From Providencia rettgeri (GTDB taxonomy: Bacteria > Pseudomonadota > Gammaproteobacteria > Enterobacterales > Enterobacteriaceae): a DNA stretch of 64,000 bases. The notes beneath the pieces are model-generated. The model searched no databases. It was not told where the DNA came from and saw only the letters and a program-made list of their open reading frames with translations. Shown here piece by piece: positions 50,312-64,000 of this stretch. Positions within the stretch are counted from its first letter, which is position 1; every line of letters begins with the position of its first letter. The translations under genes and the position numbers were made by a program. The stretch is from the NCBI RefSeq assembly GCF_013255915.1, contig NZ_CP053896.1:496001-560000 (forward strand), given 5' to 3'.

Positions 50312-50327
50312 GCAAAGGTGAGCTAAA

Positions 50328-50825
50328 ATGGCGGACAAAGACACAAAAACGATAAAACCTCAGAAGAACGAGGGGAAAAAAATTGATTTTACTCGAGCAT
50401 TAACGGTGGGCGAAGTGGCAAAACGCTCGGGAGTGCCTGTTTCTACAGTCCATTTTTATGAATCAAAGGGGCTAATTCAAAGTACACGAACTCAAGGGAA
50501 TCAGCGACGATTTCACTCTGTTGTACTTCGTTACATCGCCATTATTAAGGTTGCTCAAAGTACGGGGATCCCACTACATGAAATTCAAGAGGCATTGGGG
50601 CGTTTTCCTGCAAATAGCGCGCTAACTTCGGAGCAATGGAAGGAGATGTCGACGCAATGGCGTAAATCTTTAGATAAGCGTATTCGGCAATTGACACGTT
50701 TACGTAATGAGTTGGATAACTGTATTGGTTGTGGTTGCTTATCACTCAGTGACTGTCCGCTGCGCAATCCTGATGATGTACTTGGTAGGAAAGGCCCTGG
50801 TGCCCGTATTTTAGAACGTCCATAA
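50328..50825 (+). CDS. soxR: SoxR redox-sensing MerR-family activator
   Basis: A 165-residue transcription factor. The N-terminal MerR helix-turn-helix is [20 protein letters not shown], then the dimerisation helix [20 protein letters not shown]. The [2Fe-2S] ligands [12 protein letters not shown] (C132, C135, C137, C143) have the exact C-x2-C-x-C-x5-C SoxR spacing. About 11 extra residues precede the conserved part compared with E. coli. It is divergent from the efflux operon, whose promoter carries its operator. No soxS is adjacent, so here SoxR probably drives the pump directly, as in non-enteric bacteria, in response to redox-cycling compounds. Confidence 0.96.
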
Positions 50826-50894: not shown

Positions 50895-51057
50895 TTTAAC
50901 GATTTATATCATCACCTTACTATTTAAATTACCGCACATAATGGATATTTTTTGCGCCCATCGGCTACCCCTTTCCAGCATATTTGCGTAACTATTCGTT
51001 ATGTTAATTTTTTGTAAACTCATTGTAACTAAATGAGAGAAAAAGAGGGTGACAAAG

Positions 51058-51843
51058 ATGAAAGGCTTGAATAATAAGATTGCCATTGTGACTGGGGGAG
51101 CGACCAAAATTGGTGCAACCGTTGCGAAGGTATTAAGTGATTACGGCGTTAAAGTCACGATTTTTGACATTGATACCTTGAATGGTGAAAAGGTAGCTCA
51201 AAGTGAGCCCAATATTGATTTTCTTCCTGTCGATATCACTGACGACCAACAACTTAAACAAGGCATTGACCGTGTTGCGCAAAAATATGGGCAACTCGAT
51301 TTTTTAGTTAATCTGGCTGCCACTTATCTTGATGAAGGCCAGTTATCTACAAGGCAGGATTGGCTCACTGCGTTGAATATTAATGTGGTGAGTGCAGTGA
51401 TGGCTGCGCAGCTTGCAAAAGTACATTTCGCAAAATCGGGTAAAGGTGCCATCGTCAATTTTACCAGTATTTCTTCTTCTGTCGCCCAAACTGGTCGTTG
51501 GCTCTACCCTGCATCTAAAGCCACCATGTTAGAGGTAACTCGCAGCCAAGCAATGGATTATGCGGCTGAAGGAATTCGTGTAAATTCCGTTTCCCCTGGG
51601 TGGACTTGGTCCCGAGTTATGGATGAAATCACAGGGGGAGACCGTCAAAAAACAGACCGTGTTGCTGCTGATTATCACTTATTAAAACGCGTTGGTGACC
51701 CAGAAGAAGTCGCTCAAGTTGTCGCGTTCCTACTTTCTGATTTGGCCAGCTTTGTTACAGGTGCGGATTACGCTGTCGATGGCGGTTACTCCGCTATGGG
51801 GCCTGAACAGGCTAAACCGGCAATTCCCCGTCTTGCTGAATAA
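51058..51843 (+). CDS. Short-chain dehydrogenase/reductase (indole-dihydrodiol dehydrogenase candidate)
   Basis: A 261-residue classical SDR. The nucleotide loop is IVTGGATKIGATVA, NAA-type LVNLAATYLD follows, the catalytic Ser is in FTSISSSVAQ, and the Tyr-Lys pair is in YPASKATM. The C-terminal DGGYSAMGP is typical. The ATG at 51058 has GAGGG upstream; a GTG nine bases earlier is less likely. It is the first gene of the block and is followed 35 bp later by the StyA-like oxygenase. In Acinetobacter indole (iif) clusters an SDR oxidises the dihydrodiol of indole; the same role, or oxidation of 3-hydroxyoxindole to isatin, is inferred from context. Confidence 0.85.
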   Translation: MKGLNNKIAIVTGGATKIGATVAKVLSDYGVKVTIFDIDTLNGEKVAQSEPNIDFLPVDITDDQQLKQGIDRVAQKYGQLDFLVNLAATYLDEGQLSTRQDWLTALNINVVSAVMAAQLAKVHFAKSGKGAIVNFTSISSSVAQTGRWLYPASKATMLEVTRSQAMDYAAEGIRVNSVSPGWTWSRVMDEITGGDRQKTDRVAADYHLLKRVGDPEEVAQVVAFLLSDLASFVTGADYAVDGGYSAMGPEQAKPAIPRLAE

Positions 51844-51878
51844 GACACCATTTTAACTATTTTGTAGAGGAAAATACT

Positions 51879-53123
51879 ATGCGCCGTATTGCTATCGTCG
51901 GTGGTGGTCAAGCGGGTATGCCATTAGCTTTGGGTCTACTCAATAAAGGTTATGAAGTCACTGTTGCAACAAACCGCACTCCAGATGACGTTAAAAATGG
52001 CCGAGTGATGTCGAGCCAGTGCATGTTCGATATTTCACTGCAATTTGAACGTGATTTAGGCATTAATTTTTGGGAAGAACAGTGTCCGCCGGTTGAAGGA
52101 ATTGGTTTTACAGTTCCTCATCCCGAAAAAGCGGGGGAAAAAGTAATTTCTTGGCGTTCACGTCTCGATAATTATGCCCAAGCTGTCGACCAACGTATCA
52201 AAATGCCTTACTGGATGGAGTTATTTGCAGCTCGTGGCGGTAATTTACGCATTGAAGATGTTGGTATTGCAGAACTGGAATGCTTAGCGCAAACACACGA
52301 TTTAGTCGTGTTAGCGGGTGGAAAAGGGGAAATTGTTAAACTGCTTGAGCGCGATGCCTCCCGCTCACCTTATGACAAACCACAACGGGCCTTGGCACTG
52401 ACTTATGTGCATGGCATGTTACCAACGCCAGAGTATTCACAAGTTTCTTTCAACTTAATACCCGGTGTTGGTGAGTATTTTGTGTTCCCATCACTGACGA
52501 ATAGTGGTGATTGCCACATTATGGTGTTTGAAGGGATCCCCAGTGGGCCTATGGATCAGTGGAATGAAGCTCGTACTCCACAGGAACACTTGGCATACAG
52601 TAAAAAAATACTCAATACCTATTTACCTTGGGAAGCAGAACGTTGTCATAATGTTGAGTTAACTGATGATAATGGCATCTTAGCCGGAAGATTTGCACCA
52701 ACAGTGAGAAAACCAGTGTTAACTTTACCATCAGGTAACATTGTGTTTGGTTTAGGAGATGCGTTAGTCACCAATGACCCACTAACGGGTCAAGGTTCGA
52801 ATAACGCTACCAAGGCTTGTAAAGTCTATTATGACGCTATTTTAGCCCATGGTGACAAACCTTACACTGCAAAGTGGATGAATGACACATTTGAGCAGTT
52901 CTGGAAGTATGGTCGCCATGTTGTGGAATGGACCAATTCCTTACTCGCCCCACCTGAGCCGCATATTTTACACTTATTGGATGCAGCCCAGCAGCTGCCA
53001 TCCCTCGCACACACCATCGCGAATGCCTTTAATTACCCGCCCGTATTATTCCCTTGGTGGAAAGATGAGGCTGCTTGTGAGGCGTATATTCAATCGCAAA
53101 TGATGGAAGAAGCTCGAGCTTAA
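51879..53123 (+). CDS. StyA/IifC-type FAD monooxygenase (indole/styrene oxygenase component)
   Basis: A 414-residue flavin-dependent monooxygenase. It starts with the FAD loop IAIVGGGQAGMPLALGLL. VMSSQCMFDISLQFERDLGINFWE is a styrene/indole monooxygenase feature, and FGLGDALVTNDPLTGQGSNNATKAC is the family DG/GD block near the C-terminus. Enzymes of this type take reduced FAD from a separate reductase and epoxidise styrene or indole. The reductase gene follows directly. The ribosome site is AGAGG before the ATG. Given the cyclase and CoA-type enzymes downstream, indole is the more likely substrate than styrene. Confidence 0.88.
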   Translation: MRRIAIVGGGQAGMPLALGLLNKGYEVTVATNRTPDDVKNGRVMSSQCMFDISLQFERDLGINFWEEQCPPVEGIGFTVPHPEKAGEKVISWRSRLDNYAQAVDQRIKMPYWMELFAARGGNLRIEDVGIAELECLAQTHDLVVLAGGKGEIVKLLERDASRSPYDKPQRALALTYVHGMLPTPEYSQVSFNLIPGVGEYFVFPSLTNSGDCHIMVFEGIPSGPMDQWNEARTPQEHLAYSKKILNTYLPWEAERCHNVELTDDNGILAGRFAPTVRKPVLTLPSGNIVFGLGDALVTNDPLTGQGSNNATKACKVYYDAILAHGDKPYTAKWMNDTFEQFWKYGRHVVEWTNSLLAPPEPHILHLLDAAQQLPSLAHTIANAFNYPPVLFPWWKDEAACEAYIQSQMMEEARA

Positions 53124-53137
53124 TGGGAGATATCAGT

Positions 53138-53674
53138 ATGTCTATGATTGCAGAGGATACACTCATGTGTGATAGGGAATGGGGCGATACCGAATTTGAA
53201 TCAAAGATATTGCGTAATCTGTTGGGATGTTACCCAACAGGCGTGGCTATTGTTACCACCCGAACTGCAGATGGCCGTGATGTTGGGTTAACTATCAACT
53301 CATTTGCGTCGTTATCACTTGACCCACCATTAGTGCTATGGAGCTTAGTGAATCATTCACCAAACCTAGCGGTATTTCGTGATTGTACTCATTTTACTAT
53401 CAATATATTAGGCCACGGACACCAAGAACTAGCGATGCGTTTTGCGAACCCACGTATCGAAAATAAATTTGCAGATGTGGCTACCCACCTAACACCAGAA
53501 GGCGTTCCTGCATTGCATGGTGCTATTGCCACATTGGTGTGCGAAAACCATAAGCAAGACACGATTGGTGACCACTTATTAATGGTGGGGCATGTTCGCC
53601 GTATCGGTAGTGAAGCGGGTAAACCGTTAGTGTTCCATGGCGGTAGTTTTACTGCATTACATGAAGCGCCTTAA
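53138..53674 (+). CDS. NAD(P)H:flavin reductase (StyB/HpaC/IifD-like)
   Basis: A 178-residue flavin reductase of the DIM6/NTAB fold that supplies reduced FAD to the preceding oxygenase. Motifs are LLGCYPTGVAIVTTRTADGR, GLTINSFASLSLDPPLVLWS and HFTINILGHGHQELAMRFA, with the C-terminal GDHLLMVGHVRRI. The start at 53138 is chosen for the GGGAGA site seven bases before it; an ATG at 53123 overlaps the oxygenase stop codon but has no ribosome site. The pair forms a two-component monooxygenase. Confidence 0.9.
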   Translation: MSMIAEDTLMCDREWGDTEFESKILRNLLGCYPTGVAIVTTRTADGRDVGLTINSFASLSLDPPLVLWSLVNHSPNLAVFRDCTHFTINILGHGHQELAMRFANPRIENKFADVATHLTPEGVPALHGAIATLVCENHKQDTIGDHLLMVGHVRRIGSEAGKPLVFHGGSFTALHEAP

Positions 53675-53687
53675 GGAGGGAGTGACT

Positions 53688-54470
53688 ATGAACCAGCAAA
53701 TTTTAATGACATTCGCGACACAATTGCAGCAAGGGAACATCCAAGTTATCGACCTGACACAAACCTTATCGCCTTCATTTCCGGCACTGCAATTACCTGA
53801 ACAATTTGGGCAAGTTTGGTCATTTAGCATGGAACAAATTTCTCGCTACGACGATAACGGCCCTGCATGGTATTGGAATAATTTTAGTTGTGGAGAACAT
53901 ACCGGCACGCATTTTGATGCACCAATTCACTGGATCAGTGGCAAAGACCAAATCAACAACACCGTTGATACTATTCCAGTGGAAAACTTTGTAGCGCCAG
54001 CCGTTGTGGTAGATGCCAGTGCGGAAGTGGCTCAAAACCCTGATTGGGTGTTAACTGTAGAGTTTTTGCAAAAATGGGAAGAAAAGCACGGCACAATTCC
54101 TAAAGCAGCTTGGGTACTTTTCAGAACGGATTGGTCGAAAAAGGCGAATGACCCGGTTGCCTATGTAAGTATGCGTGAAGACGGTGCACACACGCCCGGA
54201 CCATCGCAAGAAGCGGTTGAATGGCTTATTCATCAGCGTGATGTCAAAGGGTTTGGTGTTGAAACCATCAATACAGATGCAGGGCAATCATACAGTTGGC
54301 CAGTACCTTACCCTTGCCATACTTTAATGCATGGTCACAATAAATATGGCCTGCAATGTTTGACGAACCTCGACAAACTGCCTGCGACAGGTGTCGTGAT
54401 TGTTGCTGCGCCACTTAAAATTGAAGGTGGCTCTGGCAGCCCATTACGTGTACTCGCACTTGTGGGGTGA
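53688..54470 (+). CDS. Cyclase-family metal hydrolase, isatin hydrolase candidate
   Basis: A 260-residue member of the cyclase/kynurenine-formamidase family (PF04199). The metal site HTGTHFDAPIHW (H71, H75, D77, H81) is complete, and FGVETINTDAGQSYSWPVPY with the C-terminal GLQCLTNLDKLPATG are family features. Isatin hydrolases of this family open isatin to isatinate with Mn. KynB-type formamidase is the alternative. The start at 53688 has AAGGAGGG upstream; a frame from 53637 runs into the previous gene. It lies next to an indole-type monooxygenase, which supports isatin as substrate. Confidence 0.82.
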   Translation: MNQQILMTFATQLQQGNIQVIDLTQTLSPSFPALQLPEQFGQVWSFSMEQISRYDDNGPAWYWNNFSCGEHTGTHFDAPIHWISGKDQINNTVDTIPVENFVAPAVVVDASAEVAQNPDWVLTVEFLQKWEEKHGTIPKAAWVLFRTDWSKKANDPVAYVSMREDGAHTPGPSQEAVEWLIHQRDVKGFGVETINTDAGQSYSWPVPYPCHTLMHGHNKYGLQCLTNLDKLPATGVVIVAAPLKIEGGSGSPLRVLALVG

Positions 54471-54473
54471 GGT

Positions 54474-56087
54474 ATGACAGCAAGCTCAACTCCTCAAGTG
54501 ATAGTCGTGGGCAGTGGAATGAATTCCTTGATGTGTGCAGCCTTGTTGGCAGTACGTGGAAAATCAGTCCTCGTTCTTGAGCGAAATGACCGCTTAGGGG
54601 GCTGTATCCGCACTGAGAATTTGTTTGAGGGCTATACCCATGATTTACTTTCTTGCTGGTACTCCTTATTTGTTGGTAGCCCTGGGTACCAAGAGCTCGA
54701 ACCCTATTTAAAGCAGTATGGATTAGAATTTGCTCAATGTGATTATTCAACGGGGTTAGTGCAACCGGATGGTCAATCGATTGCGTTAAAACGGGATATT
54801 TCTGAAGCGGCTAAGCAACTCGACCAGTTGGCTCCGGGGGATGGCCTTGCATTTCGTAAGATGGCGGAACAGCTATTTACGCAAGATGCAGCGCTTACAT
54901 TTGGCCTATTAGGGCAAAACCCATATAGCGCCAATATGCTGAAATTATTATTTTCAGAATGGCGAAAACGTGGAGTCGATGGCTTGCTTGATTTTGCAAA
55001 AGCAGGAATAGAAAGCTTTCGCCGTTGGTCAGAACGTGAATTACAGCACGACTTTAGCCGAGCTTTGATGGCGCCATGGGTATTACATACCGGACTTGGG
55101 CCGGATGAAGCCAGTTCTGCATTAATTGGGAAATTAACCTTTGCGGCGGTGGTGGCTGGTGGTATGCCAGTGGTGAAAGGCGGCAGTACTCGTATCGTGG
55201 AGGCTTTTGCGAAGGTTATTGAAGCGCATGGTGGCCAGCTAAAAACGGGTATGAATGTTGAAAAAATCATCACTACAGGTGAGGGGAGAAACCAACGAGC
55301 AACAGGAGTGATGGCGAATGGGCAAATCATTGCTGCGTCTGAAAGCGTAGTTTGTAACGTTACCCCAACGCAGCTGTATGGGTCATTACTCGAAAATACT
55401 TCACTGCAAGTGAGGGAAAAAGCGAGAGGTTACCGTTATGGGCGTGCGGGTATGCAAATTCATTTTGCTTTAAGCGCCCCTCCCCCTTGGTGTAATCCTG
55501 AACTGTTAAATGTACCACTGGTTCATTTCACCGAAAGCATGGAGCAAGTGTGTTTATCGGTGACACAGGCAAATAATGGTTATTTACCAGATAAACCGAC
55601 ATTTGGTATTGGCCAACCTACCGCGCTCGATCCCAGTCGAGCCCCAGAAGGAGGGTGGATCTTATGGATCCAAATGCAAGAGTTGCCTCGAGTGTTAAAG
55701 GGGGATTCTGCTGGTGAAATTTCAGTACCGGATGACGGGGGTTGGGATGAGCAAGTGCGAGAGGCTGTTGCAGATCGAATTCAACAGCGCTTAGAGCTGG
55801 TAATGCCTGGCTTTTCTAATTTGATAGTGGGGCGCAAGGCAATTTCTCCCGCCGACCTAGAAAATTATAACTGTAACCTTGTTGGTGGTGACCCTTATTC
55901 AGGAACTTGTTCACCTGATCAGTTCTTCTGGTTGCGGCCTTTTGCTGCGACTGGCCAGACGAAAACGCATCAAACCGCAGTCAAAAACCTTTTTCATATT
56001 GGCGCCTCAACCCACCCCGGTCCGGGTTTAGGTGGTGGTTCAGGTTACCTTGTTGCACAAAAATTAGCAGTCAAACGCAGGACATAA
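54474..56087 (+). CDS. FAD-dependent oxidoreductase of the phytoene-desaturase/PYROXD2-like family
   Basis: A 537-residue flavoenzyme. The N-terminal FAD loop is QVIVVGSGMNSLMCAALLAV, then VLVLERNDRLGGCIRTENLF; the C-terminal FAD contact is NLFHIGASTHPGPGLGGGSG. These are marks of the CrtI/carotenoid-desaturase superfamily. Its start is 4 bp after the cyclase stop, so the two are in one operon. No carotenoid genes lie nearby, so it probably performs an oxidation in the aromatic pathway, for example dehydrogenation of an oxindole-type intermediate. I know no close match in published indole clusters, so the step is open. Confidence 0.8.
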   Translation: MTASSTPQVIVVGSGMNSLMCAALLAVRGKSVLVLERNDRLGGCIRTENLFEGYTHDLLSCWYSLFVGSPGYQELEPYLKQYGLEFAQCDYSTGLVQPDGQSIALKRDISEAAKQLDQLAPGDGLAFRKMAEQLFTQDAALTFGLLGQNPYSANMLKLLFSEWRKRGVDGLLDFAKAGIESFRRWSERELQHDFSRALMAPWVLHTGLGPDEASSALIGKLTFAAVVAGGMPVVKGGSTRIVEAFAKVIEAHGGQLKTGMNVEKIITTGEGRNQRATGVMANGQIIAASESVVCNVTPTQLYGSLLENTSLQVREKARGYRYGRAGMQIHFALSAPPPWCNPELLNVPLVHFTESMEQVCLSVTQANNGYLPDKPTFGIGQPTALDPSRAPEGGWILWIQMQELPRVLKGDSAGEISVPDDGGWDEQVREAVADRIQQRLELVMPGFSNLIVGRKAISPADLENYNCNLVGGDPYSGTCSPDQFFWLRPFAATGQTKTHQTAVKNLFHIGASTHPGPGLGGGSGYLVAQKLAVKRRT

Positions 56088-56160
56088 TAAATCAGCAAAG
56101 GATTTGTGACTTAACAGGTAAAGCACACACAGTAAGCAACCCACTATGGCAGGAAACATG

Positions 56161-57054
56161 ATGAAAAAAACAACAATCGGTAAGCTTGTAGCAGGTTCGT
56201 GTCTCAGCATATTTTCGTTTGGTGCGATTGCCACCGAAGGTGGTGGTTTAGGGGTATACCCCGATGGGCTAGAAAACTTTATGTCAGGTGCATTGCCACC
56301 GCAAGGGGTACATGTACTGGTGTATGGTGGAAATGCGCATTATGACAGTATTCGCGATAACAAAGGCGATAAGATCCCTGTTCCGGGGTTTAGCGTCAAT
56401 GTGAATGTACTCGCTCCTCGACTTATTTGGGTAACTGACCAAAAAGTCTTTGGTGGTGATCTGGCTTTTCATACGATTGTGCCATTATTGGATGTGACTG
56501 CAAAAGCGGCTGGGCAAAAAGATACTAGCCGCGGCCTCGGTGATATTACATTTGGCCCCGCATTAGGGTTTCATCCATCAGCCGATTTGCATTATGTGGT
56601 TGGGCTAGATGCGTATGCTCCAACAGGTAAATACAGCAAAACAGACCCATCAAGTTTAGGTAAGAATTATTGGGCGCTGCAACCAGTTTGGGCAATCAGT
56701 TATATTCCACCTGTTGGTGTAAATGCGGATTTGAAGATGATGTATGACTTTAACTTCCGCAATAACGATACGAAAACACGTTCAGGGCAAGCATTTCACG
56801 CTGATTATGCACTAGGTTGGGGGTTCGGCAATGGTTGGGTGGCAGGTATTGGGGGCTATGCATTTTGGCAAACGACAGATGATAGCGGACCAAATTCAGC
56901 ACAAGGAAAAGCTCGAGCCTATTCTATTGGGCCTTCAATTCGCTATGCTAACCCGCAAGGGTGGCTATTTACTGCTAAATGGGAAAAGGATTTTGAAGTT
57001 AGAAACCGTCCAGAAGGTTCCCAAATTTATTTGAAGGCATCGATACCTTTTTAA
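56161..57054 (+). CDS. Outer-membrane channel of the phenol MetA-degradation (PF13557) type
   Basis: About 297 residues. The signal peptide (LVAGSCLSIFSFGAIA) is followed by GGLGVYPDGLENFMSGALPP, the usual opening of these aromatic-degradation outer-membrane proteins. LGDITFGPALGFHP and YAPTGKYSKTDPSSLGKNYW follow, and a C-terminal IYLKASIPF ends the barrel. Such channels often sit in operons for aromatic or hydrocarbon breakdown and are thought to admit the substrate. The start at 56161 fits AGGA best; ATGs at 56146 and 56158 are alternatives. It ends the first block of the cluster before a terminator. Confidence 0.82.
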   Translation: MKKTTIGKLVAGSCLSIFSFGAIATEGGGLGVYPDGLENFMSGALPPQGVHVLVYGGNAHYDSIRDNKGDKIPVPGFSVNVNVLAPRLIWVTDQKVFGGDLAFHTIVPLLDVTAKAAGQKDTSRGLGDITFGPALGFHPSADLHYVVGLDAYAPTGKYSKTDPSSLGKNYWALQPVWAISYIPPVGVNADLKMMYDFNFRNNDTKTRSGQAFHADYALGWGFGNGWVAGIGGYAFWQTTDDSGPNSAQGKARAYSIGPSIRYANPQGWLFTAKWEKDFEVRNRPEGSQIYLKASIPF

Positions 57055-57073
57055 ACACGTTTGTATATCAAAA

Positions 57074-57104
57074 CCCCATATTGGCATTACATAACAATAT
57101 GGGG
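57074..57104. terminator. Terminator between the channel gene and the AraC gene
   Basis: 10-bp arms CCCCATATTG and CAATATGGGG with an 11-base loop, then GGTATTTCT; it lies between convergent genes. Confidence 0.8.
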
Positions 57105-57134
57105 GGTATTTCTAAGAAAGTGATGATTGGGAAT

Positions 57135-58142
57135 TTAGGCTTTTTTCATACTCTGACTTGGAGTTTCACCATAGCGTTGTTTGTAATCTGCACTAAAGCG
57201 ACCCATATGGGCAAATCCCCAACGTAAAGCTACCCCAGTGACGCTAGTTGCTTCCCCTGAAAGGAGCTCTGCTCGAACTCGCTCCATCCGTAAATCACGT
57301 AAATACTGCATTGGGCTGATATCTAAGAACTCTTTAAAACCAGCATATAAACTGCGTAAGCTGACGCCTGCAATATGAGCTAGCTGCTCAACAGTGATAG
57401 GTTCATGGGCGTGAGCTTCTAAATATTCTTGCACTCTGCGTACGTGACGAGGACGAATTGTTGACCTTCGCATGCCTGAGTCTTCGATATAATTATGGCC
57501 TTGGGTAGAAAGTAAAGTGACAGAAACCAATTGTTCAACTTGAGTCGTGATCAATTTATGTTGTAAGAGATCGGGCGCGCGAGTTGCGCATTCAATCAGG
57601 TAATTCATCAAAGTGCGCCATGCAATGCAAGATTGCCAAGCAAAACCCAACTCAAAAACTAACGGTTTATCTAAAGTATGCCCTAGTTGGCCTACTAAGG
57701 ATCTTTCGAGTAAAGAACGGGAAATGCGTAACATAAATTGATCGTTATCGCTATTCCAACGCATTATTGTTGATTCTTCAGGGCTAAGAAGTGAGGCCAT
57801 CTGAGGAGTTGATTCAATACATTTTCCACCACTTTCGATGACTGCTGTACCTGATAGAGGCATTTGAACCAAAAAAAAGTCCTGTAGTTGCCCTGGAATA
57901 ATGGAGACATCGGCACCATAGCGTAAGCGGCTTAGAGAAATATCCCCCATAGGAATATAGTGCATACGAGCATCAAGGCGTTGATGTGGATTAAGTAAGT
58001 TAAATTGATGTGGCTTCATGACTCGACCAACCATCGATTTAATCTCTTCAGGGTCAGCTGAGGTAAATAATAAACGCTCTGAAGAACAGAGCTGATTTTC
58101 AATCTGAGATGCAGATGAATGGGACCACGAGTTGCTCAACAT
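57135..58142 (-). CDS. AraC-family regulator of the aromatic degradation cluster
   Basis: A 335-residue regulator. An N-terminal AraC-binding-like domain (RLRYGADVSIIPGQLQDFFL ... GTAVIESGG) is followed by the two helix-turn-helix motifs (ITVEQLAHIAGVSLRSLYAGFKE; TSVTGVALRWGFAHMGRFSADYK). This is the AraC_binding_2 type that often governs aromatic oxygenase genes, including IifE in Acinetobacter indole clusters. The start at 58142 has GGAGG eight bases upstream; a TTG frame 15 bases earlier contains that site. It is convergent with the first block and divergent from the second, so it could control both. Confidence 0.9.
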   Translation of the reverse strand: MLSNSWSHSSASQIENQLCSSERLLFTSADPEEIKSMVGRVMKPHQFNLLNPHQRLDARMHYIPMGDISLSRLRYGADVSIIPGQLQDFFLVQMPLSGTAVIESGGKCIESTPQMASLLSPEESTIMRWNSDNDQFMLRISRSLLERSLVGQLGHTLDKPLVFELGFAWQSCIAWRTLMNYLIECATRAPDLLQHKLITTQVEQLVSVTLLSTQGHNYIEDSGMRRSTIRPRHVRRVQEYLEAHAHEPITVEQLAHIAGVSLRSLYAGFKEFLDISPMQYLRDLRMERVRAELLSGEATSVTGVALRWGFAHMGRFSADYKQRYGETPSQSMKKA

Positions 58143-58282
58143 CGGAGGTTCCTCCAAAATGATTTGCCAGCCCTGCTTTATAGAATAACCAAAATAGGGC
58201 CCGACTAATATTGCTTGTTATGTGTTTTTCTCAGTAAATTCAATTTATTATAATATTTTGCAATGACTTATTATATTAGGGA

Positions 58283-58322
58283 GGAATGCTTTCCATTTAA
58301 GTCAAATGAAGCCTTCCTTTTT
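58283..58322 (+). terminator. Orphan intrinsic terminator facing rightward
   Basis: GGAATGCTTTCCATTT pairs with AAATGAAGCCTTCC (one mismatch, two-base bulge, AAGTC loop) and is followed by TTTTT. No rightward gene precedes it, so it may end a small RNA or an attenuated leader. Confidence 0.55.
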
Positions 58323-58450
58323 GTTAACATTTTATTGACTATTTTTTAACTAGTCATGAGTTGAACATAACATAAACAAATTTTCTTACCTAGATAAAAA
58401 CATGCAGAAACTATCCTAAAACTGCAAAAAAATAGAAACTATGCGGTTGT

Positions 58451-58466
58451 TGTGATAGCGATAACA
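58451..58466 (+). promoter_or_regulatory. CRP-like site upstream of iorA
   Basis: TGTGATAGCGATAACA matches TGTGA-N6-TCACA at 9 of 10 positions, about 420 bp before iorA. Distance makes a direct effect uncertain unless the start point lies well upstream. Confidence 0.3.
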
Positions 58467-58886
58467 ATATAAAAAATAAAGTTATTTTTATTTCAATAAC
58501 AGTAAAATATATATGATTTTTCATATTAAATTTTATGTTTACCTATCTTTTTCTTATTTAATTAATGTAATGCTCTAATTAATTATTTTATGGCGATGTT
58601 TTTTTCTGATTTGTTTGCTTTTGTGAGGCCTATTTTCTATTTAAACATGCTATTCAGTATTTTTTATTTATTTTATTGTTCTTTTTTTTCTACGCTATTT
58701 GGCGGAAAAACTAATTTTCTAGTTGTTTTAACTCACTATTTGTCCCTTATCTGCAAGCCTTATCCACTCTCTGCATAAATCTAATTTACATGATTAATCA
58801 TGGATTGACCTGTTATTAACAAAAGATATACAAATAATAAACACAAAAAAGATAAAAACGTTCTGATGTTGATTGGTGAGGTTAAA

Positions 58887-61085
58887 ATGGCTGAGCGATC
58901 GTTTGTACAAGAAGTTCAAAAATTACGGCAAGGGCAAGGTGAAACCTTCAGTGGTGAAGGGATCCTTGCTGTTACAAAAGCGCTATTAGAGTCGGGTGTA
59001 TCTTATGTTGCGGGATATCAAGGTGCTCCTATCTCCCATTTGATGGATGTCCTTGCTGACGCACAAGATATTTTATCTGAATATGGTATTCGCTTTGAAA
59101 ATAGCGCAAGTGAAGCAACTGCAGCGGCAACCTTAGCAGCCTCAGTTAATTATCCACTACGTGGAGCTGTGACTTTTAAAGCAACAGTGGGGACGAATGT
59201 CGCATCTGATGCCTTAGCTAACTTAGCTTCGGGTGGTGTGTTAGGTGGTGCTTTAATTATTGTTGGTGAAGACTATGGTGAGGGCTCTTCTATTATGCAA
59301 GAGCGTAGCCATGCTTTTGCGATGAAATCGCAGATGTGGTTGCTTGACCCTCGGCCCAATTTACCGTCTATCGTTCAAGCCGTGAAAGATGGTTTTGAGC
59401 TCTCTGAAGCCAGTAATACACCCGTTATGTTACAAATGCGTATTCGTTCTTGTCACGTTCACGGGCAATTTGTTTGCGCAGATAATCAGCGCCCTAAATT
59501 TACCGTCAAAGATGCGCTTGAGAACCCAACTCGAGACGTCAGTCGCATAGTATTACCCCCTGCTAGTTTCTTACATGAAAAAGAAAAAATTGAAGCTCGC
59601 TGGCCCGCTGCAATTAAATTTATTCAACAACATGAGTTAAATGAATTTTTTTCAGAAGACTCGGATGATGTTGGAATTGCGCTACAAGGCGGTTGTTACA
59701 ACACGCTGATCCGCGCATTAAATCAGCTAGGGCTAGCGGATGTTTTTGGTAATAGCCAGATTCCTTTATATGTGATGAATGTGGCTTATCCATTGATTGA
59801 CGATGAATTTGAACGCTTTTGTCGTCATAAAAAAGCCATTCTAGTTTTGGAAGAAGGCCAGCCAAATTTTGTTGAGCAAAATGTGGCGAATATTTTGCGT
59901 CAACGCAAGATTGATATTGCCCTGCATGGTAAGGATATGCTGCCAATGGCGGGGGAATATAATACTGCAACAGTGCTTGCGGGTTTACGTTCGTTTTTTG
60001 AATGCTATGGAAAGATAGCTCCACAAGTCAAAGTGGCTGCAAAACAGATTCGTATTCCAACGATTAATATTGCCACTCAAAAATCTGAAGAATCTTTACC
60101 TGAATACGTGAATGCAGCAGAGCCAACATTAGATGAATCTGTCCATGCGCGCCCACCAGGGTTTTGCACAGGTTGCCCCGAAAGGCCTATTTTTACTGCG
60201 ATGAAGTTGGTGGAGCGTGAATTAGGCGAACATCATGTGAGTGCGGATATCGGCTGTCATTTATTTTCTATTCTACCGCCTTTTAATTTGGGGAATACCA
60301 CCATGGGCTATGGGCTAGGAGGCGCAGGGGCTGCGGCTTTGAATGCAAAGGCTGGGAAACGTGCGATTTCAGTGATGGGAGATGGGGGGTTCTGGCATAA
60401 CGGTTTAACCAGTGGTATTGCCAATAGTGTTTTTAACCGTAGTGATAACTTAACTATTGTGGTTGATAACAGCTATACCTCTGCGACAGGAGGGCAAGAT
60501 ATTCTCTCTTCGACAGCGTTGAATCCAACCCGTAGTACTGGTCATGAAATTGAAAAAGCGGTGAAAGGGGTGGGTGTTAATTGGGTGAAAACCATTAAAC
60601 ACACCTATGACTTAAAAACCATGACAAATACGTTACGTGAAGCTTTAACAACCGATGAGCAAGGGCCCAAGGTTCTGATTGCGCAAAGCGAATGTATGTT
60701 GAACAAACAACGCCGCGAAAAGAAAAAAGTGCGTAGTGATGTTGCCGCAGGCAAACGAGTGGTACGTGAGCGTTTTGGTGTCGACCCTGATACCTGTACC
60801 GGGGATCACTCTTGTATTCGTTTATCTGGTTGCCCGTCTTTATCAATTAAACCAAGCCAAGACCCATTAAGAACAGACCCGGTTGCAACAGTGATGGATA
60901 GCTGTGTCGGTTGTGGGCTATGTGGTGAAGTCTCTCACGCTGCTGTCTTGTGCCCTTCTTTTTTTAAAGCTCAAATTATTACTAACCCTAATGGTTGGGA
61001 CAAATTGCGCCATCGTGTACGCGGTTGGTTTATTGGCTATTTACAGCGTCGTGACGCACGTCGTCGTGAACAATTTAGTTTCTAA
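58887..61085 (+). CDS. iorA: Indolepyruvate-oxidoreductase-type alpha subunit (TPP, 4Fe-4S)
   Basis: A 732-residue subunit of a 2-oxoacid:acceptor oxidoreductase, which decarboxylates an aromatic 2-oxoacid and yields its acyl-CoA. The N-terminal pyrimidine-binding domain has SYVAGYQGAPISHLMDVL. The TPP motif is GDGGFWHNGLTSGI ... VVDNSYTSATGGQ (from about residue 498). The C-terminal ferredoxin domain (about 635-690) has CTGDHSC..SGCP and CVGCGLCGEV. The start at 58887 follows GAGG; an ATG 21 bases earlier lacks a ribosome site. IorA acts on indolepyruvate in archaea and some bacteria. Next to an isatin-hydrolase-like gene, isatinate (2-aminophenylglyoxylate) is an attractive alternative substrate. 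Confidence 0.88.
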   Translation: MAERSFVQEVQKLRQGQGETFSGEGILAVTKALLESGVSYVAGYQGAPISHLMDVLADAQDILSEYGIRFENSASEATAAATLAASVNYPLRGAVTFKATVGTNVASDALANLASGGVLGGALIIVGEDYGEGSSIMQERSHAFAMKSQMWLLDPRPNLPSIVQAVKDGFELSEASNTPVMLQMRIRSCHVHGQFVCADNQRPKFTVKDALENPTRDVSRIVLPPASFLHEKEKIEARWPAAIKFIQQHELNEFFSEDSDDVGIALQGGCYNTLIRALNQLGLADVFGNSQIPLYVMNVAYPLIDDEFERFCRHKKAILVLEEGQPNFVEQNVANILRQRKIDIALHGKDMLPMAGEYNTATVLAGLRSFFECYGKIAPQVKVAAKQIRIPTINIATQKSEESLPEYVNAAEPTLDESVHARPPGFCTGCPERPIFTAMKLVERELGEHHVSADIGCHLFSILPPFNLGNTTMGYGLGGAGAAALNAKAGKRAISVMGDGGFWHNGLTSGIANSVFNRSDNLTIVVDNSYTSATGGQDILSSTALNPTRSTGHEIEKAVKGVGVNWVKTIKHTYDLKTMTNTLREALTTDEQGPKVLIAQSECMLNKQRREKKKVRSDVAAGKRVVRERFGVDPDTCTGDHSCIRLSGCPSLSIKPSQDPLRTDPVATVMDSCVGCGLCGEVSHAAVLCPSFFKAQIITNPNGWDKLRHRVRGWFIGYLQRRDARRREQFSF

Positions 61086-61094
61086 GGGGGATGC

Positions 61095-62624
61095 ATGAAT
61101 TCTTTATCAACTGCATTACCATCAACAAAAGTCGCATTACAGCCGATTAAAATTGCCATTTTAGCCATGGGCGGCGAAGGCGGTGGAGTCCTTGCCGACT
61201 GGGTTGTCAACCTAGGTGAAGAAAACGGTTATTTTGCTCAAACGACTTCAGTGCCTGGCGTGGCACAGCGCACGGGGGCAACAATTTATTATGTGGAATT
61301 ATTCCCAGGTGCTGATAACCCACAAACGCCTTCTCCTGTATTAGCGCTTATGCCGATGCCCGGTGATGTTGATGTTGTTTTGGCCTCTGAATTAATGGAA
61401 GCAGGCAGAGCAGTACAGCGCGGCTTTGTTACCCCAGAGCGCACAACATTGATCAGTTCAACACACCGTGTTTACTCTATCGCGGAAAAATCAGCCATGG
61501 GTGATGGGCGAGTCGATAGCCAAGCATTAATTCGCCACACTGCGGCATCTGCGCGTCAGTTTATTCACTTTGATATGGCACAAGCAGCACAAGAAAGTGG
61601 CAGTGTGATTAGTGCTGTTTTATTTGGTGCGCTGTTTGGTTCCGGTGTTTTGCCATTTAGCCGCGCACAATTTGAAGAAACGATTGTACGTGGAGGTGTT
61701 GGCGTAAAGCCAAGCTTGCGAGCGTTTACATTAGGAGCAGAAAAAGCGGCTAAACCCGAAGATGCATATCAGCCGGAGTCCACAAAGAACACCGTATATT
61801 CACCAAAAAATAAGCAGGTATCGCAACTATTAGCTCGTATCCAACATGAATTCTCTCCTCATGTGCAGTATCTCGTGACTGAAGGGACTCGCCGACTTAT
61901 AGACTACCAAGACCCTGCCTATGCCACTTTATATTTGGATCGCCTCAATAACCTCTTTGCGCAAGATGGCGGGCAAGATGAGCGTTTGCAACGTGCGCTT
62001 GCGCGCCACTTAGCCCTTTGGATGTCCTATGAAGACACCATCCGAGTGGCTGATCTTAAAATTCGTGATAGCCGCTTTTCTCGCGTTCGCAATGAAGTAC
62101 AGGCAAAAGATAATCAATTATTGGAGATCAATGAATTTATGCATCCAAGAATTGAAGAAATTTGCGAAACGCTTCCCAAAAATTTAGGTCGTTGGTTAAT
62201 GCGTCCACATTGGTTACACAAAGCGCTTCGCAAAATGACCGAAAAGGGGCGCACGATAACTACCAGTTCTTTATTAGGTTTTTTACAGTTGTATCTATTA
62301 GCCGCATGGCGAAAAGGCCGACGTTCGACGTTACGTTATCAACTAGAAACGCAGCGCATTGAAAAGTGGTTAGCTGCTGTAATTAAAGCAGCGAAAGCTA
62401 ACCCTGCACTTGCAACCGAAATTACCGAATGTCAACGCGTGGTTAAGGGGTATAGCGACACTCATGCGAGAGGGTTGCGTAATTTTAAAATCTTAATGGA
62501 CATCGTTGCGCAGCAAGGTAACAAACTCACCCCCATTAATTTACGTGAACTACGTGAAGCCGCATTGGCCGATGAACATGGGAAAGAATTGGAAAAATGC
62601 CGTCAACGTTTAGCGATGAATTAA
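61095..62624 (+). CDS. iorB: Indolepyruvate-oxidoreductase-type beta subunit (long form)
   Basis: A 509-residue partner of the alpha subunit. The first 190 residues are the gamma-type domain (KIAILAMGGEGGGVLADWVV; SVPGVAQRTGATIYYVELF; PGDVDVVLASELMEAGRAV) that binds CoA and passes electrons. The remaining 300 residues are a helical extension (RLIDYQDPAYATLYLDRLNN) that is found in proteobacterial long-form IorB proteins and absent from the roughly 200-residue archaeal form. AAGGGGG precedes the ATG, 9 bp after iorA. The long form is mostly seen in clusters for aromatic acids, which suits the context. The electron acceptor is unknown. Confidence 0.88.
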   Translation: MNSLSTALPSTKVALQPIKIAILAMGGEGGGVLADWVVNLGEENGYFAQTTSVPGVAQRTGATIYYVELFPGADNPQTPSPVLALMPMPGDVDVVLASELMEAGRAVQRGFVTPERTTLISSTHRVYSIAEKSAMGDGRVDSQALIRHTAASARQFIHFDMAQAAQESGSVISAVLFGALFGSGVLPFSRAQFEETIVRGGVGVKPSLRAFTLGAEKAAKPEDAYQPESTKNTVYSPKNKQVSQLLARIQHEFSPHVQYLVTEGTRRLIDYQDPAYATLYLDRLNNLFAQDGGQDERLQRALARHLALWMSYEDTIRVADLKIRDSRFSRVRNEVQAKDNQLLEINEFMHPRIEEICETLPKNLGRWLMRPHWLHKALRKMTEKGRTITTSSLLGFLQLYLLAAWRKGRRSTLRYQLETQRIEKWLAAVIKAAKANPALATEITECQRVVKGYSDTHARGLRNFKILMDIVAQQGNKLTPINLRELREAALADEHGKELEKCRQRLAMN

Positions 62625-62634
62625 GGATAACATC

Positions 62635-63057
62635 ATGAGTTTACTGATATTTACTAAGCCACATAAAATTCATTTTTCGGAGTGTGACCCCGCAGGGATT
62701 GTGTTTTACCCCCAGTATTTCGTGATGTTTAACAATTTACTTGAACGTTGGGTTGATGAATTAGTCCCTCAAGGCTTTGCGGGTTACATCATGGAACAAC
62801 GCTTTGGCTTGCCGACAGTACACCTAGAAGCGGAGTTCAAGGCCATTAGCAAAATGGGGGATAACGTGATGTTAGAGCTACATGTACAGCGTATTGGTCG
62901 CAAGTCTCTGACGTTACATCAACGCTGTGTCAGTGTTGATGGAGTACTGCGCATGCAAGTGACGCAAACCTATGTGACAACATCATTAGAAACGCATCAA
63001 GCAATTCCTATCCCAGACGCCTTGTATCAGGTATTAACCGCTCAGCAACCAGTGTAA
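62635..63057 (+). CDS. Hotdog-fold acyl-CoA thioesterase (4-hydroxybenzoyl-CoA type)
   Basis: A 140-residue thioesterase. The active-site segment [20 protein letters not shown], with Asp18 and the following N-terminal helix, is that of the 4HBT class, which acts on aromatic CoA esters. The helix [12 protein letters not shown] and strand [18 protein letters not shown] follow the family. It starts 11 bp after iorB with AAGGA upstream and ends 17 bp before the monooxygenase gene. It may release CoA from a stalled aryl-CoA and so relieve CoA trapping, a usual job of thioesterases in aryl-CoA pathways. Confidence 0.88.
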
Positions 63058-63073
63058 GCAAAGGAGAAATTCC

Positions 63074-64000
63074 ATGAATATCGTGTGTATTGGCGGTGGT
63101 CCCGCAGGGCTTTATTTCGGGTTGCTGATGAAATTACAAAACCCACAAAACCGTGTAGTGGTGGTGGAACGTAATCGCCCTTATGACACTTTTGGTTGGG
63201 GGGTAGTATTTTCTGATGCCACGCTCAGTAATTTACGCCAAGCGGACCCTGTTTCTGCTGAAACTATTTCTGCGGAATTTAGCCACTGGGATGATATTGA
63301 TGTGCACTTTAAAGGTGTATGTAACCGCAGTGGTGGCCACGGGTTTATCGGCATTGGGCGTAAAAAGTTACTCAATATATTACAAGACCGCTGTGTGGAG
63401 TTGGGTGTGGAGTTAGTGTTCGAAACCCAAGTAACGGATGACCAAGCGATTGCTCGCGAGTACCAAGCTGATTTGCTTATCGCTTCTGATGGCATTAATA
63501 GTACGGTGCGTACGCGTTATGAAAACGTATTTAAACCCGATATTGACCCACGTCGTTGCCGTTTTGTTTGGCTAGGTACAAAGAAGATTTTTGACGCCTT
63601 TACCTTCTTATTCGCTAAAAATGAGCACGGATGGTTTCAAGTTCATGCCTATCAATTTCAAGAAGGGTTATCGACCTTTATTGTGGAGACGACGGAAGAA
63701 ACCTGGCTTAAAGCCGGTATTGACCAAATGTCTCAAGAGGATGGCATCGCTTATTGTGAAAAACTATTTGCGCCGTGGCTTGATGGTGAAAAACTGATTG
63801 CTAACGCAGCGCATTTACGTGGTGCCGCAATTTGGATCCGCTTCCCTCGGGTCATTTGTGGAAATTGGGTGCATTGGACGCAGCCCACACAAGGTAAAGA
63901 CGTTCCCGTAGTATTGATGGGAGATGCCGCTCATACCGCCCATTTCTCTATTGGCTCTGGAACTAAATTAGCACTAGAAGATGCTATCGAGCTGTGTGAA
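63074..64000 (+). CDS. Salicylyl-CoA/2-aminobenzoyl-CoA-type FAD monooxygenase, truncated by the window end
   Basis: The first 309 residues are visible. The FAD loop is [19 protein letters not shown], then [34 protein letters not shown], and the GD block [20 protein letters not shown]. This combination, with the GWGVVFSD stretch, marks the N-terminal domain of salicylyl-CoA 5-hydroxylase and of 2-aminobenzoyl-CoA monooxygenase/reductase; the latter carries a C-terminal old-yellow-enzyme domain that would lie past position 64000. It would hydroxylate an aryl-CoA. The start follows AAGGAG. The presence of the second domain cannot be judged here. Confidence 0.9.

What the first reader, a model, noticed from the sequence alone, without database searches (positions are those of the whole stretch)
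51058..64000. Candidate complete indole -> isatin -> 2-aminobenzoyl-CoA degradation cluster in an enterobacterium
Seen in sequence: StyA/StyB-type monooxygenase pair, SDR, isatin-hydrolase-like cyclase, CrtI-like FAD enzyme, aromatic outer-membrane channel, AraC regulator, long-form IorAB, 4HBT thioesterase and an aryl-CoA monooxygenase of the salicylyl-CoA/2-aminobenzoyl-CoA type. Known: IifC/IifD oxidise indole in Acinetobacter, cyclase-family isatin hydrolase makes isatinate, and 2-aminobenzoyl-CoA monooxygenase/reductase dearomatises anthraniloyl-CoA. Inference: these join into one route that passes through isatinate and enters CoA chemistry without free anthranilate or catechol. I do not know of this whole route being described in Enterobacterales.
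Basis: partly seen in the sequence, partly recalled or inferred. Interest (0 to 1): 0.88.

Follow-up and report, generated by a model that had tools for sequence, protein, structure and literature searches.

The report
Indole degradation cluster keeping nitrogen late
A Providencia chromosome carries, beside genes that oxidise indole, an operon that most likely hydroxylates anthraniloyl-CoA, opens the ring of 5-hydroxyanthranilate and removes the nitrogen only afterwards, a route whose genes I could not find described.

Summary
The genome is Providencia. The upper half (StyA/StyB-type pair, SDR, isatin hydrolase, FAD enzyme, channel, AraC) is already published for P. rettgeri GS-2 (PMC9871250), so indole oxidation here is not new. 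Beyond 64,000 no CoA-ligase or beta-oxidation genes follow. The operon continues with a gentisate-dioxygenase-like cupin, a FAH hydrolase, a nitrilase-family hydrolase and a maleate isomerase. Best reading: IorAB turns isatinate into 2-aminobenzoyl-CoA, which is 5-hydroxylated, freed by the thioesterase as 5-hydroxyanthranilate, cleaved to maleamylpyruvate, and split to pyruvate plus maleamate, then maleate, then fumarate.
Support: in 41 rows (40 distinct loci) with cupin and monooxygenase, IorAB is in 40-41, nitrilase in 39, isomerase in 36, ligase or beta-oxidation genes in 0. In 20 loci with the monooxygenase but no cupin the pattern is reversed. Reductase-domain position 580 is Gln in all 41 cupin-linked rows and His in all 20 others; Gln arose at least twice. 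Some cupin clusters instead carry tryptophan-dioxygenase-like and kynureninase genes. Nothing was assayed; the steps are inferred from homology and gene context.

The parts
51049..51843 (+). SDR (IifB-like), dihydrodiol -> 3-hydroxyindolin-2-one (inferred)
   Evidence: NF006121 398 bits, cut-off 294; 59% identical to the SDR of an Acinetobacter iif-type locus
51879..53123 (+). StyA/IifC-type indole oxygenase
   Evidence: 61% to Acinetobacter homologue; same 18/24 Providencia genomes as the cupin
53123..53674 (+). StyB/IifD-type flavin reductase
   Evidence: 47% to Acinetobacter homologue
53688..54470 (+). isatin hydrolase (isatin -> isatinate, inferred)
   Evidence: 450 bits to 5nmp, 340 to 5nnb, 267 to 4j0n; HTGTHFDAP in sequence
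54474..56087 (+). CrtO/CrtI-like FAD oxidoreductase (GS-O of PMC9871250); role unknown, possibly dioxindole -> isatin
   Evidence: homologues in Vibrio, Paracidovorax, Cupriavidus and another locus
56146..57054 (+). outer-membrane channel
   Evidence: 85-95% homologues in Providencia loci; label from PMC9871250
57135..58157 (-). AraC-family regulator
   Evidence: AndR 191 bits, below cut-off 350
58866..61085 (+). IorA-like TPP/4Fe-4S 2-oxoacid oxidoreductase, alpha; proposed isatinate -> 2-aminobenzoyl-CoA
   Evidence: TIGR03336 291 bits, below cut-off 651; TPP_enzyme_C; Fe-S cysteine motifs by eye
61095..62624 (+). IorB-like beta subunit with DUF6537
   Evidence: NF006179 718 bits, cut-off 348; PF20169
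62635..63057 (+). 4HBT thioesterase; proposed 5-hydroxyanthraniloyl-CoA hydrolase
   Evidence: PF13279 49 bits; a relative (28% identity or more) in 40 of 41 cupin+monooxygenase rows
63074..64000 (+). aryl-CoA monooxygenase/OYE fusion, goes on to 65371. Further genes read beyond the window (window numbering): cupin 65401-66528, FAH hydrolase 66629-67540, nitrilase-family 67550-68581, maleate isomerase 68578-69333, MarR 69413-69961

Best explanation
The cluster is an indole-to-central-metabolism route. Upper half: indole is oxidised to the 2,3-dihydrodiol (StyA/B pair) and 3-hydroxyindolin-2-one (SDR), then to isatin (FAD enzyme or autoxidation), and isatin hydrolase gives isatinate. IorAB decarboxylates isatinate oxidatively to 2-aminobenzoyl-CoA. 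The fused monooxygenase adds the 5-hydroxyl but, with its OYE site changed, leaves the ring aromatic. The 4HBT thioesterase frees 5-hydroxyanthranilate. The cupin cleaves C1-C2; because C2 bears the amino group the product is an amide (maleamylpyruvate). The FAH hydrolase splits it to pyruvate and maleamate, the nitrilase-family enzyme removes ammonia, and maleate isomerase makes fumarate. Shown: the genes, their families, their linkage and the residue pattern. Inferred: every reaction in this organism.
For: Isatin hydrolase identity and maleate isomerase identity (322 bits to 4fq7; two Cys kept in 50 of 50). Cupin residues that contact gentisate in SDO, including the Asp that reads the 5-OH (Asp176 here by my alignment; role from PMC10306065 and PMC11264262 passages), kept in 85 of 85. 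Nitrilase Glu-Lys-Cys kept in 65 of 65. Cupin+monooxygenase rows: IorA 40, IorB 41, FAH 41, nitrilase 39, maleate isomerase 36 of 41 rows (40 distinct loci), CoA ligase/ECH/ACAD 0; monooxygenase without cupin: ligase 16, ECH 17, ACAD 18 of 20, cupin/FAH/nitrilase/isomerase 0. Control: 16 loci of low-identity (42% or less) cupin relatives hold 0 nitrilase, 0 isomerase, 0 IorA matches. OYE position 580: Gln 41 of 41 rows against His 20 of 20; 668 Glu 41/41 against Gln 20/20; no FAD-domain position met the same filter. FAD-domain tree rejects one clade for the Gln set, p-AU 0.0006. Cupin clusters with tryptophan-2,3-dioxygenase-like and kynureninase genes and no monooxygenase (L074, L085, L095), and with IorAB + thioesterase but no monooxygenase in the stretch (Ruegeria, Shinella), fit a 5-hydroxyanthranilate node fed by 5-hydroxylated precursors. 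In one Providencia (G017) a second copy has an AMP-binding ligase (46-48% to ligases of the other type) and no IorAB in the stretch. PMC3534580 (passages) cites that 2-aminobenzoyl-CoA monooxygenase/reductase forms 5-hydroxyanthraniloyl-CoA when NADH is limiting.
Against: No enzyme was assayed. The cupin's nearest solved relative (3bu7, 541 bits) is reported as a gentisate dioxygenase (PMC4585797, PMC11264262 passages), so gentisate may be the substrate. The nitrilase is closest to nitrilases, not to a known maleamate amidase, and is not near every cupin: at 60% identity or more it lies in 21 of 47 rows of cupin without monooxygenase, isomerase in 13 (some stretches end before it could appear); of the four extra high-identity cupin loci two have only a 35-36% nitrilase and two none, and none has an isomerase match. 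Only 22 of 41 cupin+monooxygenase rows show an indole- or isatin-type gene in the stretch; in Xenorhabdus griffiniae none was seen in the 16 kb further read (L048), so the operon can stand without the upper half. The Gln rows are mostly one clade; the second origin is Novosphingobium, on a long branch, with a 34-35% nitrilase and no isomerase seen. In Variovorax CL014 the iad locus yields free anthranilate (PMC12633357, PMC9613470 passages), and GS-2 cultures showed anthranilate, salicylate and catechol (PMC9871250). IorAB's substrate is untested and its alpha subunit falls below the IOR cut-off.
Confidence: 0.65

Rival explanations
1. Gentisate variant: 5-hydroxyanthranilate (or its CoA ester) is deaminated to gentisate before the cupin cleaves it, as proposed long ago for Alcaligenes In3 and Nocardia opaca.
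For: Gentisate was reported as an indole intermediate in Alcaligenes In3 and 5-hydroxyanthranilate -> gentisate in Nocardia opaca (PMC6221969 section 8 and passages, PMC4539516 passages, citing Claus & Kutzner 1983 and Cain 1968, not seen). Nearest structure 3bu7 is called a gentisate dioxygenase. Alcaligenes faecalis AU14 carries IorAB-4HBT-monooxygenase-cupin-FAH-nitrilase (L124).
Against: I recognise no deaminase gene in the operon; a nitrilase-family hydrolase has no evident job if the ring carries no nitrogen; the 16 low-identity gentisate-type loci lack it.
Confidence: 0.15
2. One reading: 2-aminobenzoyl-CoA is hydroxylated and reduced by the fused enzyme and degraded by beta-oxidation genes elsewhere in the genome.
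For: Same domain architecture; NF006101 score above cut-off; Qu et al. 2017 (not seen; cited in PMC6221969) call a 2-aminobenzoyl-CoA cluster vital in Cupriavidus SHE.
Against: 0 of 41 cupin-linked rows have ligase, ECH or ACAD of that pathway within the stretch; OYE motif His changed; the operon holds ring-cleavage genes. Beta-oxidation genes elsewhere in the genome were not searched.
Confidence: 0.07
3. A salicylate/gentisate cluster unrelated to indole.
For: NCBI's family names (salicylyl-CoA 5-hydroxylase, gentisate dioxygenase-like).
Against: No CoA ligase in the operon; two clusters that look like that route (L203, L204) have a 379-385 aa enzyme without OYE and a low-identity dioxygenase, and L203 a 537 aa ORF that is ligase-like by eye. 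Linked to isatin hydrolase, and with the indole oxygenase in the same 18 of 24 Providencia genomes.
Confidence: 0.04
4. Published reading for P. rettgeri GS-2: anthranilate -> salicylate -> catechol.
For: LC-MS detection of anthranilate, salicylate, catechol (PMC9871250, section 3.5).
Against: 0 of 24 Providencia genomes have PF00775 intradiol dioxygenase; 0 of 24 match the Acinetobacter IifA-place protein (no positive control); 15 of 24 have one PF00848 protein with open frames of 379-408 aa, shorter than the 440 aa Rieske-type ORF of L253 and not classified further. Extradiol dioxygenases were not searched.
Confidence: 0.06

Closest known systems
iif/ind indole cluster (Acinetobacter, Cupriavidus SHE) and GS cluster of Providencia rettgeri GS-2
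   Same: Indole oxygenase pair, SDR, channel, AraC regulator (SDR 59%, oxygenase 61%, reductase 47%, AraC 37%, channel 24%). GS-B, C, D, A, O, E, R match this window's upper half in description, order and, but for the regulator, size.
   Different: The Acinetobacter locus read has a 422 aa hydrolase-like ORF in the IifA place and ORFs that look by eye like anthranilate dioxygenase genes beside it; here isatin hydrolase and the IorAB-cupin operon stand instead. The GS-2 paper's sections read end at GS-R and propose catechol.
2-aminobenzoyl-CoA monooxygenase/reductase pathway (Azoarcus evansii, Arthrobacter Rue61a)
   Same: Fused FAD + OYE enzyme; 2-aminobenzoyl-CoA substrate proposed.
   Different: No ligase or beta-oxidation genes beside it; OYE motif His -> Gln, Gln668 -> Glu; a ring-cleaving cupin in the operon.
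iad locus for auxin degradation (Variovorax, Achromobacter, Bradyrhizobium)
   Same: IorAB (IadA/IadB) and MarR; Alcaligenes faecalis AU14 has most of the operon next to genes that look by eye like Rieske, ligase and thiolase genes of iad type. IadI is annotated a kynurenine formamidase (PMC12633357 passage); its relation to isatin hydrolase was not tested.
   Different: No Rieske IadCDE in this cluster; the main text of the two iad papers held has no mention of cupin, nitrilase or maleate (figures and supplements not seen).
Salicylyl-CoA 5-hydroxylase / gentisate route
   Same: CoA-ester 5-hydroxylase and gentisate-dioxygenase-like cupin.
   Different: OYE fusion, amide hydrolase, maleate isomerase, IorAB, no ligase.
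Nicotinate pathway end (maleamate -> maleate -> fumarate)
   Same: Maleate isomerase related to 4fq7.
   Different: Amide step proposed for a nitrilase-family protein rather than NicF (recalled as isochorismatase-like).

Membership tests
iif indole-oxidation cluster | StyA-type oxygenase, flavin reductase and SDR together | tested here: met
iif indole-oxidation cluster | IifA cofactor-independent oxygenase giving anthranilate | tested here: not met
   no blastp match of the Acinetobacter IifA-place ORF in the cluster, 0 of 24 Providencia genomes (no positive control)
isatin hydrolase | sequence relation to solved isatin hydrolases over full length | tested here: met
   450 bits to 5nmp, residues 5-259 of 260
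2-aminobenzoyl-CoA monooxygenase/reductase pathway | fused FAD monooxygenase + OYE domains | tested here: met
2-aminobenzoyl-CoA monooxygenase/reductase pathway | anthranilate-CoA ligase and beta-oxidation genes nearby | tested here: not met
   0 of 41 cupin-linked rows; 16, 17 and 18 of 20 in the others; none in the window operon
2-aminobenzoyl-CoA monooxygenase/reductase pathway | OYE motif His pair | tested here: not met
   first His is Gln580, second (583) is His in the window's protein; catalytic role recalled from OYE enzymes
gentisate 1,2-dioxygenase | NCBIfam equivalog TIGR02272 score over cut-off | tested here: not met
   301.7 bits, cut-off 442.1
gentisate 1,2-dioxygenase | iron and substrate pocket residues | tested here: met
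   85 of 85, residue roles from PMC11264262 and PMC10306065 passages
gentisate 1,2-dioxygenase | turnover of gentisate | not testable with these tools
   needs assay
maleate isomerase | homology to solved maleate isomerases and two catalytic Cys | tested here: met
   (Cys role recalled)
nitrilase superfamily amidase | Glu-Lys-Cys triad | tested here: met
   65 of 65 (triad recalled)
nitrilase superfamily amidase | activity on maleamate | not testable with these tools
   needs assay
indolepyruvate oxidoreductase | alpha subunit TIGR03336 over cut-off | tested here: not met
   291 bits, cut-off 651; beta NF006179 718 over 348
iad auxin locus | Rieske oxygenase IadDE in the cluster | tested here: not met
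   no such ORF in the cluster; the genome's one PF00848 match lies at C1:698676, outside it

The most novel reading that the evidence does not exclude
A general, so far unnamed lower pathway for aminoaromatics in Pseudomonadota, the 5-hydroxyanthranilate pathway: the amino nitrogen is carried through ring cleavage as an amide and released only from maleamate. It is a plug-in sink for indole, auxin, anthranilate and 5-hydroxylated tryptophan derivatives. Its hydroxylase evolved at least twice from the dearomatising 2-aminobenzoyl-CoA enzyme by the same change in the reductase site, and the solved Ruegeria 'gentisate dioxygenase' 3bu7 belongs to it.
Probability: 0.55. Interest if true: 0.85.

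Novelty: new variant of a known kind. Interest (0 to 1): 0.72.

Why it matters
A 2018 review lists as open whether isatin is a true intermediate of indole breakdown and which genes serve the 'gentisate' branch of anthranilate breakdown ('an unreported enzyme', PMC6221969 section 8). This operon gives a concrete, testable gene set for both. It also bears on annotation: proteins that score as salicylyl-CoA 5-hydroxylase/oxidoreductase fall here into two context types with different predicted products, told apart by residue 580. All 24 Providencia genomes examined have a tryptophanase-like gene (below the curated cut-off), so the 18 that also carry this cluster could both make and mineralise indole, a signal molecule.

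Tried and rejected
Beta-oxidation right of 64,000: looked for and absent in the 20 kb read. A single-clade explanation for Gln580: a tree from the FAD domain alone rejects one clade, but the second lineage is one long-branched row (Novosphingobium L129); L243 and L249 have Gln580 and Glu668 too but Met427, and the fragment in L119 shows the same Gln and Glu by eye. Direct cleavage of anthranilate by the cupin (as salicylate dioxygenase does with salicylate): rejected because FAH chemistry needs the 5-oxo group and the 5-OH-reading Asp is kept; inference. First ORF calling in high-GC loci took antisense frames; redone with a codon model. E. coli near search empty. Literature: open library only, searches; no listed title or abstract start, and no passage I read, describes a 5-hydroxyanthranilate dioxygenase or this operon; only 20 of 29 and only 30 of 103 hits were listed. 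Chen 2008, Qu 2017, Sadauskas 2017, Claus & Kutzner 1983, Cain 1968 and Langkau were not seen, only as cited. PMC10306065 passage: 5-nitrosalicylate dioxygenase is not active on 5-hydroxyanthranilate. PMC13280823 and PMC10005059 passages added nothing to the case.

Rows dropped or doubled: L033 and L082 are one contig (two rows; L033 left out of the trees); L049, counted with the no-cupin rows, lies beside cupin locus L034 on one contig and was dropped (20, not 21); L035 and L051 are one contig. Of the five cupin+monooxygenase rows without isomerase, L068 and L075 end at a contig end. Monooxygenases in pieces or under 85% length (such as L067) were left out; the salicylyl-type enzymes gave no row there for the same reason. 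Of the 70 genomes with the monooxygenase, 20 were fetched with surroundings (chosen down the list by score; G339 and G338 passed over), besides those read before. Of 42 cupin matches, 20 were fetched: 4 of 8 high-identity, 16 of 34 low; the other four high-identity ones had been fetched before.

Full report
What is there. The window is G000:C1:496001-560000 of a 4.74 Mb genome. Its 24-genome genus group shares contigs with named Providencia records (G014:C31 and NZ_GG703821.1, P. rustigianii, both 193,416 bases; G007:C1 and NZ_CP017671.1, P. rettgeri RB151, both 4,780,676 bases), so the genus is Providencia. I read on past 64,000. In window numbering the operon continues: monooxygenase/OYE fusion to 65,371, cupin 65,401-66,528, FAH-family hydrolase 66,629-67,540, nitrilase-family hydrolase 67,550-68,581, maleate-isomerase-like protein 68,578-69,333, MarR 69,413-69,961. 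From IorA to the isomerase the gaps are 9, 10, 16, 29, 100, 9 and -4 bases.

Upper half. The cyclase is an isatin hydrolase by sequence: 450 bits to 5nmp over residues 5-259. The oxygenase, SDR and reductase are 61%, 59% and 47% identical to those of an Acinetobacter baumannii iif-type locus. There a 422 aa hydrolase-like ORF stands in the IifA place, and ORFs that look by eye like anthranilate dioxygenase genes lie beside it. No protein of the window cluster matches that 422 aa ORF, nor does any of 24 Providencia genomes (the tool warns that without a positive control this shows nothing by itself). P. rettgeri GS-2 has the same upper half in the same order: GS-B SDR, GS-C/D oxygenase and reductase, GS-A cyclase, GS-O, GS-E, GS-R. 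GS-C makes indigo and indirubin from indole, more so with GS-D in E. coli (PMC9871250, sections 3.3, 3.4, 3.5 and Discussion read). That paper draws isatin to N-formylanthranilate by GS-A and a catechol route; the homology found here predicts isatinate instead. It calls GS-O found only in Providencia; homologues lie in Vibrio, Paracidovorax, Cupriavidus and another Burkholderiaceae locus at 48-74%.

Lower half, identity of parts. Monooxygenase: NF006101 1280 bits, cut-off 1078, FAD part VioD-like, C-terminal OYE. Cupin: 541 bits to 3bu7, but below the gentisate dioxygenase cut-off (301.7 of 442.1). In 299 phylum genomes its 42 matches at E 1e-30 or better split into 8 at 69-100% identity and 34 at 42% or less. 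Isomerase: 322 bits to maleate isomerase 4fq7. Nitrilase-family: 228 bits to NitA 6zby. FAH: 193 bits to 8sky, 129 to maleylpyruvate hydrolase 6jvv. Catalytic residues: cupin 85 of 85 at Arg84, Arg85, Gln109, His120, His122, Arg128, His161, His163, Trp174, Asp176; nitrilase Glu47, Lys132, Cys166 in 65 of 65; isomerase Cys82 and Cys199 in 50 of 50. Asp174 of salicylate dioxygenase, which contacts the 5-OH of gentisate (PMC10306065 passages; also PMC11264262), I align by motif with Asp176.

Gene context. With further loci, rows were classed at identity thresholds set by me. Cupin + monooxygenase, 41 rows (40 distinct): IorA 40, IorB 41, 4HBT 40, FAH 41, nitrilase 39, isomerase 36, isatin hydrolase 13, CoA ligase 0, enoyl-CoA hydratase 0, acyl-CoA dehydrogenase 0; 22 of 41 show some indole- or isatin-type gene in the stretch, 19 do not. 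Monooxygenase without cupin, 20 after dropping L049: ligase 16, hydratase 17, dehydrogenase 18, cupin, FAH, nitrilase, isomerase 0. Cupin without monooxygenase, 47 rows: FAH 46, nitrilase 21, isomerase 13, IorA 6, tryptophan-dioxygenase-like + kynureninase 3. As control, 16 loci of the low-identity cupins hold no nitrilase, isomerase or IorA match; 7 of them hold a 36-39% match to the monooxygenase, and in the two read out (L203, L204) that ORF is 379 and 385 aa, without the OYE part (L203), which looks like the salicylyl-CoA/gentisate route. Against me, of four further high-identity cupin loci two have only a 35-36% nitrilase, two none, and none an isomerase match.

A residue that tells two types apart. 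In 41 cupin-linked monooxygenase rows (window plus 40 loci, one contig twice) position 580 of the OYE domain is Gln; in 20 of 20 monooxygenases from loci without the cupin it is His. Position 668 is Glu 41/41 against Gln 20/20, 510 Arg 40/41 against Lys 20/20, 427 Thr 40/41 against Met 20/20, 708 Gln 37/41 against His 18/20. No position of the FAD domain passed the same filter. Six further cupin-linked enzymes, including the second copy in G017, have Gln580 too. Position 580 aligns with the first His of the HAAHGYL motif of 7o0t; that this His pair holds the substrate in OYE enzymes is recalled. A 60-row tree places the Novosphingobium enzyme L129 among the other type; a tree from the FAD domain alone also needs two changes and rejects a single clade (log-likelihood 108 lower, p-AU 0.0006; long branches warned). 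Novosphingobium plasmid loci L243 and L249 share Gln580, Glu668 and Arg510. PMC3534580 (passages) cites that 2-aminobenzoyl-CoA monooxygenase/reductase gives 5-hydroxyanthraniloyl-CoA when NADH is limiting and the dearomatised product otherwise, and reports that Rue61a does not grow on 5-hydroxyanthranilate. So a changed reductase site might leave 5-hydroxyanthraniloyl-CoA. This is inference, not shown.

Natural replacements. In G017 a second copy of the operon (L043) runs 4HBT-monooxygenase-cupin-FAH-nitrilase-isomerase and ends in an AMP-binding ligase, 46-48% identical to ligases of the other type (348 bits to benzoate-CoA ligase family, cut-off 375), with no IorAB match in the stretch: as expected if IorAB and the ligase each supply an aryl-CoA. 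In L074, L085 and L095 (Pseudomonas, Burkholderia) the cupin-FAH-nitrilase-isomerase set stands with a tryptophan-2,3-dioxygenase-like protein (L074: 308 bits, cut-off 391) and a kynureninase (L095: 270 bits, cut-off 246) and no monooxygenase, which fits 5-hydroxytryptophan as source. In Ruegeria pomeroyi, whose megaplasmid cupin (62% identical to the query) I take to be 3bu7 by organism and annotation, not by a sequence comparison, the set stands with IorAB, thioesterase, aminotransferase and aldehyde dehydrogenase; in Shinella with IorAB, thioesterase and a cyclase-family gene; neither has the monooxygenase in the stretch. Alcaligenes faecalis AU14 has IorAB to nitrilase plus an isatin-hydrolase relative (no isomerase seen), joined to genes that look by eye like Rieske, ligase and thiolase genes of iad type.

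Link of halves and other routes. The indole oxygenase and the cupin occur in the same 18 of 24 Providencia genomes. In Xenorhabdus griffiniae no upper-half gene was seen in the 16 kb further read (L048), so the lower operon is not tied to indole everywhere. Tryptophanase-like genes are in 24 of 24, all under the curated cut-off. PF00775 intradiol dioxygenase: 0 of 24. PF00848: one in each of 15 of 24, open frames 379-408 aa. Extradiol enzymes, and beta-oxidation genes elsewhere in the genome, were not searched.

Chemistry. Cleaving gentisate between C1 and C2 gives maleylpyruvate; with NH2 at C2 the same cut gives an amide. That would explain why an amide-hydrolase-family gene and a maleate isomerase come with this cupin. 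This is deduction from established chemistry.

What is known. PMC6221969 (section 8 and passages) lists as open whether isatin is an intermediate and what genes serve the gentisate pathway, and reports that a 2-aminobenzoyl-CoA cluster was vital in Cupriavidus SHE (Qu 2017, not seen). Cupriavidus IDO here has the full operon next to iif-type genes (L061). PMC12538310 (abstract, section 3.1 and passages) proposes anthranilate and catechol for Pseudomonas savastanoi. PMC9613470 and PMC12633357 (passages) end the iad route at anthranilate, and their main text does not hold the words cupin, nitrilase or maleate (figures and supplements not seen).

Verdict. All reactions need assays.

Noticed in passing
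window numbering 72696-73316 (L003:10697-11317, - strand): A flavin-reductase-like protein (no NCBIfam hit) whose family recurs in 32 of the stretches near the cupin, from about 0.1 to 7.5 kb away; membership of the window's own copy by eye. Role in the route unknown.
   Followed up: partly
L043 (G017:C1:1447001-1467000): Second, ligase-bearing copy of the lower operon in one Providencia, with a MarR and a porin gene beside it and HipA-like and OYE-family genes further off.
   Followed up: partly
L074, L085, L095: Tryptophan-dioxygenase-like + kynureninase + amino acid permease + Lrp-type regulator genes beside the cupin set: candidate 5-hydroxytryptophan catabolic cluster.
   Followed up: partly
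for example L057, L064, L090, L092, L104, L106: Cupin + FAH with a branched-chain-type ABC transporter and an alpha/beta hydrolase (BD-FAE, scanned in L108) instead of IorAB and monooxygenase; an imported conjugate of 5-hydroxyanthranilate (avenanthramides are such amides) is a guess.
   Followed up: no
L240 (Ruegeria pomeroyi megaplasmid): A cupin, probably the one solved as gentisate dioxygenase 3bu7, lies between a nitrilase-family gene and FAH and maleate-isomerase-like genes; its natural substrate may be 5-hydroxyanthranilate.
   Followed up: partly
L052 (G008:C6:4355001-4375000): Genes that look by eye like a fimbrial set sit between the channel and the AraC gene of the cluster in this relative.
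   Followed up: yes
window 45563-50825 and L003:8218-19709: By eye, the cluster is flanked on the left by an RND efflux pair, a DoxX-like and a MerR gene, and on the right by a sodium/proton exchanger-like gene and fimbrial genes.
   Followed up: no
G010:C1:1243591-1244934: A second, weaker tryptophanase-like gene (491 bits) in one Providencia, perhaps tyrosine phenol-lyase.
   Followed up: no
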